From: an uncultured Lachnospiraceae bacterium
Lineage (GTDB): Bacteria; Bacillota; Clostridia; Lachnospirales; Lachnospiraceae
Reading direction: 5' to 3'
Length of the DNA: 54,720 nt
NCBI GenBank assembly: GCA_947169235.1
Contig: CAMVOY010000009.1
Coordinates: forward strand, 1 to 54,720
A program made the translations under genes and the position numbers. Under the pieces are notes generated by a model, which did no database searches, was not told the DNA's origin, and saw only the letters and a list, made by a program, of their open reading frames with translations. The first letter of the stretch is position 1. Each line of letters opens with the position of its first letter. This document shows, one piece after another, positions 26,619 through 32,690 of the stretch.

Positions 26619-27887
26619 TTACGCATTGCGATACACGATCATCCCGCTACAAATAGTGTACTTTACCTCTCCCGGAAGCTCCCAACCGAGGAAAGGTGAG
26701 TTATCCGACTTCGATGCGAAGCCTTCTACCTTCCATGTTTTATCAGGATCAAAAATAACCAGATCGGCCACTCCTCCGACCTCTATCGGCCACGGCTTAA
26801 GCGAGTAAAAATCCGCTTGATTTTTACTCATCTTTTCCAAAAGTTGCATCATGGAAAGATGTCCCGGCTTAACAAGATTTTTGATACCGAGACCAAGCGA
26901 CGTCTCGAGTCCGATAATACCGCTCGGAGCTTTATCCATCGGGACATTTTTCTCCTCACGTGTGTGAGGCGCATGGTCGGTCACGATCATATCGATGGTT
27001 CCGTCTTTGAGCCCCACGATGATCGCCTGTCTGTCGGCTTCAGTTCGTACCGGTGGGTTCATCCTCGCCATCGTACCGTACTTAAGCACGGCATCCTCAG
27101 TCAGAGAAAAATGATGAGGAGTTGCCTCGGCATGTATGTCTGCTCCCTTATTTTTATACTCCCTCACTATGTCTACGGAAACTGCCGAGCTGATATGCTG
27201 TATACAAACTCTCGCCTTCGTCTCGAGTGCTACCTGGCAGTCGCGCTTCACCATAACATCCTCAGCCTCATGAGAAGCTCCACCGTAATTCAACTGTTCG
27301 GAAACCTTTCCCTGATTTACTCCGGGAGCAACTATAAACTTAGGATCTTCCTCGTGAAGGCTTATAGGCATACCGATCTCGTATGCTTTGGCAAACGCAT
27401 TTCTGAGTATGTATTCATCCATGATAGGGAGTCCGTCATCGGTAAAGCCGGCAGCTCCCGCTGCCTTTAAGATGTCCATATCAACAAGCTCTTTACCGGC
27501 CATGCCCTTTGTCACGGTCGCACAAGACAGAACGTGGATCCCGGTCTTTGCTCCCTTATCAAGCACGTACTTAAGCGTCTCAGGGTTATCCACTGCAGGC
27601 TTAGTATTTGCCATACAAACAACGGTGGTGAAGCCGCCTCTCTTTGCAGCCTCTGCTCCTGTCTCGATATCTTCTTTATGAGTGAATCCCGGATCTCTGA
27701 AATGCACATGAGCATCCATTAGTCCCAGTGCCACCACACATCCGGTCGCATCGATGACTTCGTCATCTTCCCCTGCGGGCAGATCCTTCCCGACCTTAAC
27801 AATCTTTCCATCATTAATAATAATATCAAGATCGTCCTCAGTTGATGTAAACGGATCAACCACGTGACCACCTTTTACAAGCATCAT
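26619..27887 (-). CDS. pyrC: Dihydroorotase
   Basis: Zinc amidohydrolase that closes carbamoyl-aspartate to dihydroorotate in pyrimidine synthesis. 422 residues, the PyrC/PyrX type I form. Metal ligands: DAHVHFRDPG (HxH), the bridging-Lys region, later His residues (SLHEED, EATPHHFSL) and the catalytic Asp in VTDHAPH. The start is placed at 27887 (ATG ATG, GGGAG about 10 nt upstream). The frame stays open to 28055, but those extra 56 residues read through a hairpin element and do not look like protein. No other pyr gene is close, apart from a phosphoribosyltransferase-like gene at 37.6 kb. Confidence 0.94.
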   Translation of the reverse strand: MMLVKGGHVVDPFTSTEDDLDIIINDGKIVKVGKDLPAGEDDEVIDATGCVVALGLMDAHVHFRDPGFTHKEDIETGAEAAKRGGFTTVVCMANTKPAVDNPETLKYVLDKGAKTGIHVLSCATVTKGMAGKELVDMDILKAAGAAGFTDDGLPIMDEYILRNAFAKAYEIGMPISLHEEDPKFIVAPGVNQGKVSEQLNYGGASHEAEDVMVKRDCQVALETKARVCIQHISSAVSVDIVREYKNKGADIHAEATPHHFSLTEDAVLKYGTMARMNPPVRTEADRQAIIVGLKDGTIDMIVTDHAPHTREEKNVPMDKAPSGIIGLETSLGLGIKNLVKPGHLSMMQLLEKMSKNQADFYSLKPWPIEVGGVADLVIFDPDKTWKVEGFASKSDNSPFLGWELPGEVKYTICSGMIVYRNA

Positions 27888-27953
27888 ATCATCTAAACTC
27901 CCAAACAAAAAAACAATACACGAAATGGAACAAGTATATTTGCTTTTAAAGCA

Positions 27954-28131
27954 GGGGCTGTCAATAATATGTTTTGCAGGATGAAATATGTGTATCACCG
28001 TGAGGGATATCTCTTTAACGTCGTTGCGTAGCACGCGTATTCTGCGTGCATGCAACGTGACGTTAAAGAAAGAAGCGAAAGCGTGCCCTCACGGATACAC
28101 ATGCTCATCCTGCACCATTATTGACAGCCCC
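27954..28131 (+). repeat. Long structured intergenic element (copy 2)
   Basis: A 178-nt inverted repeat fills most of the gap 27888-28237. Outer arms GGGGCTGTCAATAAT / ATTATTGACAGCCCC, then GCAGGATGA / TCATCCTGC and CCGTGAGGG / CCCTCACGG. Inside are CTTTAACGTC / GACGTTAAAG, GTTGC / GCAAC and GCACGC / GCGTGC, with bulges GTA and AT and loop GTATTCT. The 3' side carries the bulge AAGCGAAAGCGTG. Copy 3 at 31252 has the same plan with different stem sequence. The outer ends resemble transposon-type inverted repeats, but no target duplication was seen. Confidence 0.85.
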
Positions 28132-28237
28132 GGTAGGATACGTTCTTCATCCCGAAAGCATATATCATTAGCTGTTCTGCCTTAAATCACCAGTATGTTT
28201 CAGTCGCACTATAAATCACCAATTGCTCATGAATCCA

Positions 28238-29281
28238 TCACCAGTTAAACTTATAAACAGTCGTAGAGTTAAACGCCTCTCCCTTCGGCAGATAGCACGA
28301 CAAAAACTCCGGAATATTTACAGCATTCGGGAAGAACTGTGTCTCGAGACAAACAGCATCACGCTTGTTGTAAACATGTCCGCCCTTGCCGCTCACACCG
28401 TCAAGGAAGTTTCCTGAATAGATCTGGACACCCGGAAGATCAGTAAACACATCCATGCTTCTTCCCGTGCTCTCCTCTGAAAGAGTAGCAACCTTGGCAT
28501 AACCTCTCGGATCCTTTCTGAGAACCCAGTTCTGATCATAACCGCCGGCACCCTTGAGCATCTCATCATCGGCATCGATATCCTTTGAAAGCTTCTTTGT
28601 CGTACGGAAATCAAAAGCAGTACCCTCGACATCGATAAACTCTCCTGTCGGGATAAGCTCACCGTCAGCCTTTGTAACCTGATCTGCATTGATCTGAAGT
28701 GAATGCTCCACAACCGTACCTGAACCCTCACCCTTCAGATTAAAGAATGAATGGTTGGTAGGATTGTAGATAGTATCAGCATCAGAGCGGGCGAAATACT
28801 CGATCTTTAACTCGTTGTCATCAGTAAGTGTATAGGTAACCTTCACCTCAAGAGCGCCCGGAAATCCCTGCTCACCGTTTGGACTTACTCTCTCAAAATA
28901 AACAGCGTTATCACCTGCGGTATCACCTTTGTACATTACTTTATTATACCAGGGCTCGCCACCGTGAAGATTGTTGTTGCCATCATTTTTCTGAAGATCA
29001 TAATCCGTTCCGTTGAGATTGAAACGCGCATTTCTGATGCGGTTAGCATGTCTTCCGACAAACGCTCCGAAGAAGGTGTCACCATCCTCGTAGCCTGCAA
29101 CATCATCGAATCCGAGAACCACATCATCGACCTTTCCCGACTTGTCGGGAACGTTGATCGCCTGCACTGTCGCACCGAAGTCAAGAAGTGCCACACTCAT
29201 GTTGTTCTTATTTGTGATCGTAAACTTGGTTACGCCCACACCGTCCTTAGTTGTTCCGAACTGCTCTTTTGTTACTGCCAT
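28238..29281 (-). CDS. galM: Aldose 1-epimerase (mutarotase)
   Basis: Interconverts alpha and beta anomers of galactose/glucose, feeding the Leloir pathway. 347 residues. GalM signatures: FVGRHANRIRNARF, LQKNDGNNNLHGG (catalytic region), NPTNHSFFNLKG (catalytic His), DQNWVL and GVQIYSGNF, with the Glu base in VCLETQFFPNA. The start at 29281 has GGAGG 7 nt upstream; the 14 extra codons before it are non-coding. No galK or galT lies beside it. Confidence 0.94.
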   Translation of the reverse strand: MAVTKEQFGTTKDGVGVTKFTITNKNNMSVALLDFGATVQAINVPDKSGKVDDVVLGFDDVAGYEDGDTFFGAFVGRHANRIRNARFNLNGTDYDLQKNDGNNNLHGGEPWYNKVMYKGDTAGDNAVYFERVSPNGEQGFPGALEVKVTYTLTDDNELKIEYFARSDADTIYNPTNHSFFNLKGEGSGTVVEHSLQINADQVTKADGELIPTGEFIDVEGTAFDFRTTKKLSKDIDADDEMLKGAGGYDQNWVLRKDPRGYAKVATLSEESTGRSMDVFTDLPGVQIYSGNFLDGVSGKGGHVYNKRDAVCLETQFFPNAVNIPEFLSCYLPKGEAFNSTTVYKFNW

Positions 29282-29358
29282 TTTACTACCTCCATTCATT
29301 TTGAAAAATATTCCGACACGCAAACTCCCCCTCGCGTGTAAGTTTCATAGCTTAAATA

Positions 29359-31161
29359 TCACTCAGCCTGATCAGCTTTTTCTTCTACGGTTATCGCAAG
29401 CCCCAGCTCCTTTAACTGCTCATCATCAACAGTTCCCGGTGCCTCCGTCATAAGACATGATGCATCCTTAACCTTCGGGAACGCGATGACATCACGGATA
29501 GACTCGGCACCGACCATCAGCATGATCATACGATCAAGTCCGTATGCGAGACCCGCATGAGGCGGCACTCCGTACTTGAAAGCATCCAGAAGGAATCCGA
29601 ACTGCTCGTGTGCTCTTTCTCTGGTGAATCCCAGCGCATCAAACATCTTTTCCTGTATATCATCGCGGTGGATACGAATAGATCCGCCACCAAGCTCTGT
29701 ACCGTTAAGTACGATATCATACGCCTCGGCACGAACACGTCCCGGATCAGACTCCAGGAATTCAAGGTCCTCCTCCATCGGCATCGTAAACGGATGATGC
29801 ATCGCCTGATAACGACCGAGATCCTCGTTATACTCAAGAAGCGGGAACTCCGTTACCCAAAGGAAATTAAACTTGCTCTCATCGATGATCTCCATCTGAC
29901 GGGCGAGTTCGAGACGAAGGTTGCCGAGCACATCCCAAACAACCTTATTTTTGTCCGCAGCAAATACGAGAAGATCTCCCTTCTCACCATCCATAGCTTT
30001 GACAAGAGCATCGAGCTCATCCTCCGTCATAAACTTCGCAAAGCTCGACTTGTATGTACCATCCTCATTCACCGCAAGGTAAGCAAGACCTTTTGCTCCG
30101 AAATCCTTGGCAAAATCCACGAGCTTATCGATCTTTTTACGCGGCATATCGCCCTGTCCCTTTGCGTTCAGTCCTCGCACGGATCCGCCTGCCTCGATAG
30201 CGCCCGTAAATACGCCGAAGCCACAACCCGCAACAACATCCGTTACGTCTACAAGCTCCATGCCGAATCTGGTATCCGGCTTGTCGGAACCATAACGGTT
30301 CATCGCCTCGATCCACGGCATCCTCTGAAGCGGGATCTCAACATCCACTCCGACTTTGGCAAACACCCTTTTCAAAAGTCTCTCGTTAACGTCGATAACA
30401 TCATCGATATCAACGAATGAAAGCTCCATATCTATCTGCGTGAATTCCGGCTGACGATCGGCTCTTAGGTCCTCATCGCGGAAGCATCTCGCGATCTGGA
30501 AGTATCTGTCATAACCCGAGCACATCAAAAGCTGTTTGAAAAGCTGCGGGCTCTGTGGTAACGCATAAAAATTCCCCGGATGAACCCTGCTCGGTACCAG
30601 GTAGTCTCTCGCTCCCTCGGGAGTAGATTTCGTGAGCATCGGCGTCTCTATCTCAAGGAAACCTTCCTCTGCCAAAAATGCTCTGACCTCCATACAAACC
30701 TCTGATCTTAACATCAGATTTCTCTGAAGATCCGGCCTTCTCAAGTCAAGATAACGATACTTAAGTCTGACCTCATCCTTAGTCTTTGAGTTCTCCTCGA
30801 TTGGGAACGGCGGAGTCTCACTCTCGGAAAGGATCCTCATATCCTTCGCGATAACCTCGATCGAGCCTGTCGCCAGATCCTCGTTTACAGCACCGCCTCT
30901 CTTTGCGACCTCACCGGTTACAGCGATAACGAACTCAGCTCTCAGATGTCCTGCACGCTCGAAGTTCTCTGTTCCGATCTTATCCTCCTCAAAAAGTATC
31001 TGCAACAGTCCCGATCTGTCTCTCAGATCCACGAAACAAAGTCCACCCTTATTTCTGTTCTTCTGTACCCATCCCATGACGGTTACAGTTTCCCCGATAT
31101 TGCTTTCAGATAGTTCCGCACATCTGCAGGTGCGGTGCAAGCCTTTCATTGATTCAGCCAT
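29359..31161 (-). CDS. aspS: Aspartyl-tRNA synthetase
   Basis: Class IIb synthetase, 600 residues, bacterial form. The N-terminal OB fold binds the anticodon (VMGWVQKNRNKGGLCFVDLR, in part). The core has YLVPSRVHPGNFYALPQSPQ (flipping loop, in part) and FRDEDLRADRQPEFTQID (motif 2). A GAD insertion sits at about 290-420, and motif 3 is GLAYGLDRMIML. It lies downstream of hisS, as in most Firmicutes, but here a 160-nt structured element separates them. Confidence 0.96.
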   Translation of the reverse strand: MAESMKGLHRTCRCAELSESNIGETVTVMGWVQKNRNKGGLCFVDLRDRSGLLQILFEEDKIGTENFERAGHLRAEFVIAVTGEVAKRGGAVNEDLATGSIEVIAKDMRILSESETPPFPIEENSKTKDEVRLKYRYLDLRRPDLQRNLMLRSEVCMEVRAFLAEEGFLEIETPMLTKSTPEGARDYLVPSRVHPGNFYALPQSPQLFKQLLMCSGYDRYFQIARCFRDEDLRADRQPEFTQIDMELSFVDIDDVIDVNERLLKRVFAKVGVDVEIPLQRMPWIEAMNRYGSDKPDTRFGMELVDVTDVVAGCGFGVFTGAIEAGGSVRGLNAKGQGDMPRKKIDKLVDFAKDFGAKGLAYLAVNEDGTYKSSFAKFMTEDELDALVKAMDGEKGDLLVFAADKNKVVWDVLGNLRLELARQMEIIDESKFNFLWVTEFPLLEYNEDLGRYQAMHHPFTMPMEEDLEFLESDPGRVRAEAYDIVLNGTELGGGSIRIHRDDIQEKMFDALGFTRERAHEQFGFLLDAFKYGVPPHAGLAYGLDRMIMLMVGAESIRDVIAFPKVKDASCLMTEAPGTVDDEQLKELGLAITVEEKADQAE

Positions 31162-31251
31162 TTTTCATTCACCTCATAATAGTTTATTTATTATTATCAT
31201 TAATAATATTCACATCACAATTTCAAGAATATCACATCGAAATTCTAAATC

Positions 31252-31414
31252 ACTAATTCATGGGTGGAGCGCATTTAATTCACATTCGGCGAGGGTCATT
31301 TGCAAGCGTCGGTGCGTAGGCGCCGTATTTTGGCGCCATGCACCGCTACGCTTGGAATTAAGCGCAAGCGGGCCCGAGCGAATGTAATTAAATCGCGACA
31401 CCCTATAGATTAGT
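31252..31414 (+). repeat. Long structured intergenic element (copy 3)
   Basis: Between the hisS stop and the aspS start. Outer arms ACTAAT..GGGTG..GCG / CGC..CACCC..ATTAGT, then ATTTAATT / AATTAAAT and ACATTCG / CGAATGT. Inner stems CAAGCGT / ACGCTTG, GGTGC / GCACC and GGCGCC / GGCGCC, with bulges GTA and AT and loop GTATTTT. The 3' bulge is AAGCGCAAGCGG (from 31360). Same architecture as copy 2 with compensating base changes. Its right end overlaps the hisS stop codon. Confidence 0.85.
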
Positions 31415-32690
31415 CATTAAACACTTCTCTGATATCTGTAAACCCTTGCTCCGTGAGCTGATCCTTCTGGAACTTTTTGTTCTTTTTCATGCGCATGACA
31501 CTGACATGTGCCCCCTCAGCCCGAAGCTTATTTGCCTGATCTATCGAGGATCTCACCTGATCTGCCGTGCATTTTTTGTCGATCAAAAATGCCACCTTCT
31601 TACTCTCGGACGGGATCTGGTATCCACGCTCCATAAGTAACATCGATATCCTCTCGAAACCGATCGAGAACCCGCACGCCGGCGTGTCCTGTCCGGTGAA
31701 CCTTCCAACCATCGTATCGTAACGGCCGCCGCCTCCAACAGATCCGCCGTACTCATCCATCGCGATCTCAAAGATCGGTCCGGTATAGTAGCTCATGCCT
31801 CGAACCAGAGTAGGATCAAAAAGGATCTTAAACTCCGTAGCAGAACTGTCCGCTGCCACACTCATGATCTCTGAAAGGTTGTCGCTGACTCCCTCCTCGA
31901 GACTGTCACCGAGAGTCGATGCCAGATCTGAAAGTCTGTCGAGTCCGACCGCTCCCACACCGTCTGCACCCTCACTCAGATCCTGAGCGGCAAATATACT
32001 CATGCACTTATCAACTGCATCCTGTGCATAGCCGGCTGAAAGTAACTCCTCCTTTACGCCGTCGGCACCGATCTTGTCCATCTTGTCAAGCACGATAAAT
32101 ACGTCGTCATACTGATCCTCATTGAAGCCGCAATACTTTGCGATGCCCTTTAGTATGCGTCGATCGTTTATCCTTATCGTAAAGTTTTTAAAATCAAGTT
32201 TTCCGAGAAGCGTTGTCATGGCAAGTATAAGCTCGATCTCAGCAAGGTTAGAGGCCTCACCGAGTATATCGATATCACACTGCATAAACTGGCGGAATCT
32301 CCCTCTCTGCGGACGGTCCGCTCTCCAGACATTGCCGAGCTGCATCGCCTTAAATGGTGAGCTTAGCTCCGCACTGTTATTCGAATAATACCTTACCAGA
32401 GGTACGGTGAGATCAAACCTGAGTCCTCCGTCCGTGAGATCCGCTTCCTCCTTTGCCTCAGCCAGACGAAGCTTCTCCCCGCGCTTTAATATCTTGAAGA
32501 TCAGCTTTTCATTCTCACCGCCATGTCCACCGGTGAGGTTCTCTATAGGCTCCACACACGGTGTTTCTATCTGATCGAAGCCAAAGCTTTTGTATGTCTT
32601 TCTTATCATGTCAAGAACATACTCTCTTATCTCCATCTCGCGTGGAAGTATGTCTCTCATTCCTGTTGTCGGTTTCTTTTTCAGTGTCAT
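31410..32690 (-). CDS. hisS: Histidyl-tRNA synthetase
   Basis: Class II synthetase, 426 residues. Motif 2 is FRADRPQRGRFRQF-like (WRADRPQRGRFRQFMQCDID, in part). The histidine motifs are LVRGMSYYTG and GGGGRYD, and motif 3 is ACGFSIGFERI. A C-terminal anticodon domain follows (VAFLIDKKCTADQV). The start at 32690 has GGAGG 5 nt upstream; the in-frame TTG four codons earlier overlaps that site. It lies 44 nt after hemZ in the rel-MBL-hemZ-hisS operon. Confidence 0.96.
   Translation of the reverse strand: MTLKKKPTTGMRDILPREMEIREYVLDMIRKTYKSFGFDQIETPCVEPIENLTGGHGGENEKLIFKILKRGEKLRLAEAKEEADLTDGGLRFDLTVPLVRYYSNNSAELSSPFKAMQLGNVWRADRPQRGRFRQFMQCDIDILGEASNLAEIELILAMTTLLGKLDFKNFTIRINDRRILKGIAKYCGFNEDQYDDVFIVLDKMDKIGADGVKEELLSAGYAQDAVDKCMSIFAAQDLSEGADGVGAVGLDRLSDLASTLGDSLEEGVSDNLSEIMSVAADSSATEFKILFDPTLVRGMSYYTGPIFEIAMDEYGGSVGGGGRYDTMVGRFTGQDTPACGFSIGFERISMLLMERGYQIPSESKKVAFLIDKKCTADQVRSSIDQANKLRAEGAHVSVMRMKKNKKFQKDQLTEQGFTDIREVFND

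What the first reader, a model, noticed from the sequence alone, without database searches (positions are those of the whole stretch)
27954..31414. A structured intergenic element whose stems covary between copies
Copies at 27954-28131 and 31252-31414 share one plan but not one sequence. The tip is a two-part stem with bulges GTA and AT and a 7-nt loop GTATTYT; a lower stem and long outer arms follow. Paired bases change together: GCACGC/GCGTGC against GGCGCC/GGCGCC, GTTGC/GCAAC against GGTGC/GCACC, and CTTTAACGTC/GACGTTAAAG against CAAGCGT/ACGCTTG. The unpaired 3' bulge AAGCGMAAGCGKG, the loop and the small bulges are conserved. Kept structure with kept loops is the mark of a selected RNA or single-stranded DNA element. 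All copies have the same orientation, opposite to the flanking genes. I do not recognise it as a known class. It could be a small RNA, an mRNA element read from the other strand, or a non-autonomous mobile hairpin.
Basis: seen in the sequence. Interest (0 to 1): 0.82.

Follow-up and report, generated by a model that had tools for sequence, protein, structure and literature searches.

The report
Lachnospiraceae hairpin repeat with locus-specific arms
Gut and rumen bacteria of one family carry up to dozens of copies of a large hairpin-shaped DNA repeat whose tip is conserved while its long arms usually differ from site to site; it looks like an undescribed mobile element that spreads by an unknown machinery.

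Summary
Both window copies fold far better than shuffled sequence. They belong to a large family: 57 covariance-model hits in this genome, 54 of 120 sampled genomes of the GTDB family, own genome included, and only that family's genomes (7) among 291 of the class. Rfam has no match. In 114 distinct cores, 33 of 35 pairs changed on both sides. A lateral GNRA mini-hairpin and the tip loop are kept.

'All copies one orientation' holds only in the window; orthologous copies are sometimes inverted or missing in sister species.

New facts: copies with at least 85% identical cores have, on average, arms no more alike than other pairs, yet 53 of 57 copies have their own opposite arm as best partner. 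Close pairs here are always '- then +' (7 of 7). One relative has 53 similar copies, many beside terminators.

Best reading: a REPIN-like, non-autonomous mobile hairpin recognised by shape; the enzyme is unknown. Y1 transposase and integron integrase are missing from all tested high-copy genomes, reverse transcriptase from 8 of 15. RNA or ssDNA function is not shown.

The parts
27954..28131 (+). Element copy 1 (whole hairpin), between an aldose-epimerase gene and an amidohydrolase gene, both on the - strand (the longest mechanical ORF of the latter, 26619-28055 with a TTG start, runs into the element; a start near 27887 would not)
27998..28094 (+). Copy 1 core (97-nt covariance-model match, 109.3 bits)
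28031..28049 (+). Copy 1 tip stem-loop, loop GTATTCT; bulged A at 28030
28070..28085 (+). Copy 1 long 3' strand of the asymmetric internal loop with the GC(GAAA)GC mini-hairpin at 28075-28082
27954..28006 (+). Copy 1 left outer arm
28086..28131 (+). Copy 1 right outer arm, complementary to the left arm
31252..31414 (+). Element copy 2 (whole hairpin), between genes for an aspartyl-type and a histidyl-tRNA synthetase on the - strand (31410-31414 overlap the last bases of the latter's ORF)
31286..31381 (+). Copy 2 core (model match, 73.4 bits)
31319..31337 (+). Copy 2 tip stem-loop, loop GTATTTT; bulged A at 31318
31362..31369 (+). Copy 2 GC(GCAA)GC mini-hairpin in the 3' strand of the internal loop

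Best explanation
The two features are copies of an undescribed family of non-autonomous mobile hairpin elements, found here only in Lachnospiraceae (GTDB family of the window's genome). Each copy has a conserved core of about 97 nt (tip stem-loop, bulged A, 2-nt bulge, lower stem, asymmetric internal loop with a GNRA mini-hairpin) on long palindromic arms. SHOWN by comparison: dispersal over the family, covariation, presence/absence and inversion at orthologous sites, many similar copies in one relative, core-arm decoupling, a fixed '- then +' geometry of close pairs in this genome. INFERRED: a protein recognises the core by shape when it is single-stranded (displaced or lagging-strand DNA, or RNA), and the core spreads to new intergenic sites or is swapped between old ones by gene conversion. 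The arms mostly do not travel with the core. They are either palindromes already at the target (such as terminators) or are built and kept complementary locally by intrastrand template switching, or are held complementary by selection alone.
For: 57 model hits in the genome; 40 of 57 have no ORF of 70 aa or more across the core, 15 have one of 73-147 aa and 2 one of 263 and 278 aa. 54 of 120 family genomes; 7 of 291 class-sample genomes, all 7 of that family. Orthologous sites in two close relatives: of 55 comparisons 30 same orientation, 6 inverted, 12 absent or short, 7 unreadable. C64:2934 is filled here and empty in G011, G002 and G010. G171: 53 copies distinct by flank that fit one pattern; commonest core in 17 of 53, median identity to it 98%. 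18 of 30 G171 copies have a terminator pointing into their right end, against 2, 6 and 5 for the other geometries. Own arms pair at -30.3 kcal/mol against -11.8 between copies, own partner best in 53 of 57. 107 copy pairs with core identity >=0.85 have mean arm identity 0.614 against 0.607 over all 1596 pairs. Close pairs '-+' in 7 of 7. GNRA in 109 of 116 rows. G.U in 51 of 3423 standard pairs outside two wobble positions.
Against: No mobilising gene was linked to it: PF01797 has no match in the seven highest-copy genomes of the genus, RVT_1 none in 8 of 15 high-copy genomes, and no integron integrase passes the cut-off in 10 of 10. No clean target-site duplication was established. Decoupling could come from gene conversion alone, and two core-identical pairs do share arms (C68:882/C25:31091, 0.88; C37:10481/C25:19849, 0.73-0.76). 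In G171 single-sided arm changes (42 cells) outnumber double ones (9) of 848, so arms are not corrected quickly there. The terminator bias is absent in the window's genome (right/- 10, right/+ 4, left/+ 10, left/- 4 of 55) and in 67 other loci (8, 4, 10, 8). Several 'absent' sites are losses (C25:25634 truncated in G011 and G002; C55:3047 missing in G011, present in G002). At C64:2934 other relatives are not empty: G008 has an element there and G016 and G027 have extra DNA that I did not read.
Confidence: 0.6

Rival explanations
1. A multi-copy structured RNA with a host function (small RNA or protein-binding RNA), copies dispersed by recombination.
For: Strand-polar features on one strand: GNRA tetraloops in 109 of 116 rows, conserved loop, a G.U closing pair in 112 of 114 rows, the + strand of both window cores folds better than the - strand.
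Against: Copy number runs from 0 to 59 within one genus, copies invert and vanish at orthologous loci, both orientations against genes occur. GNRA loops are also stable in DNA (recalled), so polarity does not prove RNA.
Confidence: 0.17
2. A bacterial SINE-like RNA element inserted by target-primed reverse transcription at terminator T-tracts.
For: In G171 the right flank has a terminator of the opposite strand in 18 of 30 copies, in 15 of them with the T-run edge 76-87 nt from the arm, that is close to the element's right end, the geometry expected if a T-tract primed copying of an RNA 3' end.
Against: No RVT_1 match in 8 of 15 high-copy genomes, the window's own included; the bias is absent in other genomes.
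Confidence: 0.08
3. Not mobile: old palindromes whose arms are rewritten by template switching or kept by selection, with cores homogenised by gene conversion.
For: Few G.U intermediates; three species share outer arms at the copy-1 locus but have different lower stems and tips, one inverted; tandem and truncated copies; several absences are losses.
Against: 53 similar copies with different flanks in G171 and the filled/empty pattern at C64:2934 are most simply movement to new sites.
Confidence: 0.12

Closest known systems
REP / BIME / REPIN palindromic repeats (PMC3116915, passages seen; PMC3733652, abstract and passages seen)
   Same: Dispersed extragenic imperfect palindromes, high copy, inverted doublets, compensatory changes, some families set inside larger palindromes.
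   Different: REPs are 20-40 bp with an unpaired GTAG or CGTC tag and (GTAG type) an associated RAYT.
MITEs and larger repeats such as ERIC, RUP, BOX (recalled; titles and abstracts in the listings)
   Same: Size class, intergenic location, no ORF.
   Different: A MITE's terminal inverted repeats are alike in all copies (recalled); here outer arms of core-identical copies are on average no more alike than others. No parent IS found.
Integron attC sites (recalled)
   Same: Conserved shape with variable sequence, folded single strand with extrahelical bases.
   Different: Dispersed over many contigs; no integron integrase above cut-off in 10 of 10 high-copy genomes.
CGTC-tagged REPs (PMC3733652, passages)
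   Same: A CGTC before a palindrome, no transposase partner, head-to-head dimers.
   Different: 8-9 bp stems, 4-5 nt loops, CGTC unpaired; the paper names five phyla for them, none Firmicutes, and the word Firmicutes does not occur in its main text.

Membership tests
REP/REPIN | 20-40 bp palindrome | tested here: not met
   97-nt core; hairpin spans 140-252 nt
REP/REPIN | unpaired GTAG or CGTC tag at the foot | tested here: not met
   the CGTC columns are paired in every row of A1 and in every row of A4
REP/REPIN | RAYT / Y1 transposase in the genome | tested here: not met
   PF01797: 0 matches in G000, G011, G002, G016, G008, G010, G023 at E<=1e-4; G010 is 61% and G008 84% complete
REP/REPIN | inverted doublets | tested here: met
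   7 of 7 close pairs in G000 are '-+', but these hold only 14 of 57 copies
REP/REPIN | extragenic, high copy | tested here: met
   57 hits; 40 of 57 free of any ORF >=70 aa over the core, 17 not, by a simple ORF reading
MITE | terminal inverted repeats shared by copies | tested here: not met
   arms decoupled from cores in G000; shared among the G171 copies examined
MITE | target-site duplication | tested here: inconclusive
   no consistent duplication read by eye at empty sites or G171 ends
Integron attC | integron integrase present | tested here: not met
   0 of 10 genomes over the TIGR02249 cut-off; all 10 have weaker tyrosine-recombinase matches
Any Rfam family | score at or above gathering threshold | tested here: not met
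   window: none; 7 loci: only an S10 leader and a tRNA in the flanks; window 27900-31450 at E<=10 and 5 other-species loci at E<=1: 6 and 2 hits, all below gathering
Phage or plasmid borne element | present in viral or plasmid collections | tested here: not met
   one exact pattern: 0 in viral contigs; copy 1 by blastn: no match in phages or plasmids at E<=1e-5

The most novel reading that the evidence does not exclude
A shape-recognised mobile module that builds its own palindrome: a core hairpin enters a site as a folded single strand (DNA or RNA), and the flank is then copied into the opposite arm by hairpin-primed template switching, so a copy gets arms of local sequence. At C64:2934 the outermost left arm (GAAATCAC) is an inverted copy of host sequence already present in the empty G011 allele. 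(Odds lowered from 0.22 on recount, because single-sided arm changes outnumber double ones 42 to 9 in G171.)
Probability: 0.18. Interest if true: 0.88.

Novelty: new variant of a known kind. Interest (0 to 1): 0.7.

Why it matters
It is a widespread and, in some genomes, very abundant repeat of gut and rumen bacteria that Rfam does not hold. It separates a conserved recognition core from changing arms, which gives a natural system for asking how hairpins are recognised without much sequence, how palindromes are made and kept, and what moves small non-autonomous elements in Firmicutes that lack RAYTs.

Tried and rejected
Known RNA family: no match. RAYT/Y1 mobilisation: no Y1 gene in the genus's high-copy genomes. 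A resident reverse transcriptase as a requirement: rejected (none in 8 of 15), though an extinct source is possible. Integron attC: no integrase over cut-off. Phage or plasmid carriage: no match. Element halves flanking a gene (an autonomous copy) in G171: none seen among the 95 listed matches, many of them minus-strand echoes of the palindrome; only 40 of 138 candidates were scored. A genome with a single listed hit (G164) showed only ABC-transporter-like ORFs beside it, by eye. A general rule of docking at terminators: seen in G171, not in this genome or 67 other loci (the terminator test is my own script). Neighbour genes were not annotated beyond the four in the window, so a gene association is not excluded. 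Literature: the searches (open-access papers only) listed no description of this element. PMC12306157 (RepRanger) was searched for six taxon words only. PMC8040213 (passages; supplements not read) lists 3161 candidate RNAs of human microbiomes, 250 of them palindromic, and could contain it under a number.
Full report
WHAT IS THERE. The window is contig C9 of a 2.37-Mb, 106-contig, 96.6% complete genome. Copy 1 (27954-28131) lies between an aldose-epimerase gene and an amidohydrolase gene, copy 2 (31252-31414) between two tRNA-synthetase genes (class II D/K/N type and His type), all four on the - strand. Both copies fold into one long hairpin (z -13.0 and -9.7, 0 of 200 shuffles as stable). The core, read 5' to 3' on the element's + strand, has: a 7-bp tip closed by G.U around a 5-nt loop; a bulged A; a 7-bp stem; a 2-nt 3' bulge; a lower stem of about 10 bp; an asymmetric internal loop whose long 3' strand carries GC(GNRA)GC; then arms with small bulges that reach beyond the core on both sides.

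HOW MANY. Nucleotide search found 36 places, one of them copy 1 on its own reverse strand. A covariance model built from 23 cores (A1, model R1) found 57 hits at E<=0.01 (150 of 682 candidates scored). 40 of the 57 have no ORF of 70 aa or more across the core in a simple ORF reading; 17 do (73-147 aa, and two of 263 and 278 aa). Flanking ORFs are both opposite to the element in 31, both same in 17, convergent in 6, divergent in 1, one missing in 2. In 61 genomes, 18 had R1 hits, all in the same genus (18 of 37 genus genomes, counts 0-59; none in 24 others); that model is tuned to the genus. Model R2, from 116 diverse cores, found 54 of 120 sampled family genomes, own included (34 candidates scored per genome), and in a class-level sample 7 of 291 genomes, all 7 of the same family (E<=1e-5, strict filters, 14 candidates per genome). 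Of 79 of these loci searched with R1, 78 have a model hit; the one titled Gammaproteobacteria (L152) does not and is probably chance. Titles Bacteroides and Gastranaerophilales also occur; the Bacteroides record CAMECH010000001 (239,875 bases) has the length of contig C1 of G156, which is placed in this family, so that title is probably wrong. One exact pattern gave 0 in viral contigs, and blastn of copy 1 gave no match in phages or plasmids.

COVARIATION. A1: 97.3% of cells paired, 20 of 35 pairs with both sides changed, 154 such cells against 42.6 in shuffles. A4: 114 distinct rows, 90.7% against 63.3%, 33 of 35 pairs, score 0.675 against 0.182; slid structures reach at most 46.9% and 0.130. 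The number of further pair types is not above shuffles in either set. A4 was fitted to the model and related rows count many times. The GNRA rule holds in 109 of 116 rows (GAAA 45, GCAA 35, GAGA 16, GGAA 8, GCGA 3, GGGA 2), with a varying stem (GC/GC 93, GT/AC 14, AC/GT 5, other 4). Outside two wobble positions G.U makes only 51 of 3423 standard pairs; I would expect more wobble intermediates in ordinary RNA evolution (recalled; no control family was run).

CORE AND ARMS ARE DECOUPLED. The 35 nt on each side of the core pair within a copy at -30.3 kcal/mol on average, between copies at -11.8, and 53 of 57 copies have their own opposite arm as best partner. Yet among 1596 copy pairs, the 107 with cores at least 85% identical have mean arm identity 0.614, against 0.607 for all pairs. 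Example: C25:3538 and C4:7570, cores 96% identical, arms 0.57 and 0.59. Exceptions: C68:882/C25:31091 (cores 0.99, arms 0.88) and C37:10481/C25:19849 (0.96; 0.73-0.76). In G171, by contrast, the copies examined share their arms, with at least two further arm layers outside (GTCAATTTGCACA/TGTGCAAATTGAC and GTGTCAAAAGCCC/GGGCTTTTGACAC) cut off differently at different loci (by eye). So arms can be carried along in a young burst and become locus-specific later, or be made locally. This is not settled.

ORTHOLOGOUS SITES. Two close relatives were compared: G011, whose contigs C14 and C17 have the lengths of two records of Lachnospiraceae bacterium P6B14, and G002 (the copy-2 neighbour protein is 99% and 98% identical). 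Of 55 comparisons, 30 show a copy in the same orientation, 6 inverted, 12 absent or too short, and 7 could not be read because the region holds a pair. This is a pattern test; members of pairs and both relatives are counted apart. Three of the six inversions (copy 1 in G002, C2:26561 and C52:8223 in G011) were checked by eye, the other three not, and one of them (C25:3538) has an ill-matched gap. Copy 2 is present with the same core score in G011; in G002 only GGGTAGAGTAGTTTTAAAACTACGACACCC remains. At the copy-1 locus all three species have a copy with recognisably the same outer arms, but each has a different lower stem and tip, G011's tip carries an extra palindrome, and G002's copy is inverted. 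C64:2934 is filled here and empty in G011, G002 and G010, while G008 has an element of the other orientation in the same gap and G016 and G027 have extra DNA there that I did not read; a gain here is likely, not proved. At this site the outermost left arm GAAATCAC is complementary to host sequence GTGATTTC present in the empty allele. At C8:10966 G011 has a bare 17-bp hairpin with a 3-nt loop where this genome has the element inside the same arms. Some differences are plainly losses: half elements at C25:25634 in G011 and G002; C55:3047 missing in G011 but present in G002.

RECENT SPREAD. G171 (4.6 Mb) has 14 listed model hits of one and the same score and 53 copies distinct by their flanks that fit one pattern; the commonest core occurs in 17 of 53 and the median identity to it is 98%. 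Some stand in tandem. In 18 of 30 the right flank has an intrinsic terminator on the - strand whose T-run points into the element; the other three geometries gave 2, 6 and 5 of 30. This bias is not seen in this genome (10, 4, 10, 4 of 55) nor in 67 other loci (8, 4, 10, 8).

PAIRS AND NESTING. Within 500 bp, close neighbours in this genome are '-+' in 7 of 7 cases and never '+-'. In a hand-picked, biased list from other genomes I counted 15 '-+', 1 '--', 1 '++'. Twelve of the 57 hits here span 110 nt or more instead of about 97. In those read directly, a palindrome of about 20 nt sits in the tip loop (L023, L028, L029, L030) or, in L017, in the GNRA mini-hairpin. So small hairpins seem to enter loops of this element, as the element may enter loops of other hairpins.

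HOW IT PROBABLY WORKS. Shown by comparison: dispersal, turnover, inversion, structure conservation, decoupling. Inferred: recognition of the folded core by an unidentified protein; the single strand could be DNA or RNA. For DNA: inversion at orthologous sites, both orientations against genes, REPIN-like pair geometry. For RNA: the GNRA rule and the conserved loop, though GNRA loops are stable in DNA too (recalled). Template switching as the source of arm complementarity rests on the scarcity of wobble pairs, the flank-like arm at C64:2934, and three G171 copies with double transversions and no matching single intermediates (positions 4 and 8). Against it, in the same G171 arms 42 cells are changed on one side only and 9 on both, of 848. 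Each sample is small.

WHAT IT IS NOT. No Rfam family. No Y1 transposase in the genus's seven highest-copy genomes. No RVT_1 in 8 of 15 high-copy genomes. No integron integrase over cut-off in 10 of 10. I could not find it in print with the searches, which cover open-access papers only.

VERDICT. A real, apparently undescribed hairpin repeat found only in one family here, best read as a non-autonomous mobile element that works like a REPIN but does not meet REP membership (size, tag, transposase). How it moves and how its arms arise is open and testable in a cultured isolate.

Noticed in passing
L023, L028, L029, L030 (tip loop), L017 (GNRA mini-hairpin); G011 copy at the copy-1 locus (L303): A palindrome of about 20 nt like GGAAACTCGAAGAGTTTCC sits in the tip loop of some copies and once in the lateral mini-hairpin, as if a smaller hairpin element enters loops of the larger one.
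   Followed up: partly
window 31252-31414 and G000:C77:4264 (L012): Copies at two unrelated loci share the outermost flank ACTAATTCATGGGTGGAG...CGACACCC although their inner arms and cores differ, which suggests a second, outer repeat in which the element is nested.
   Followed up: no
G171 tandem arrays, e.g. L338, L343, L346 and G171:C41:52410-53170: Head-to-tail arrays of the element with a period of roughly 150-300 bp.
   Followed up: no
L005 right flank; G000:C64:400 flanks; G000:C55 flanks: Arm fragments are repeated next to the element (for example CATCCC(C)GTACGTCTTCA three times beside L005), as if the arms were copied repeatedly into the flank.
   Followed up: no
JAMPHU01 was not checked.
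   Followed up: partly
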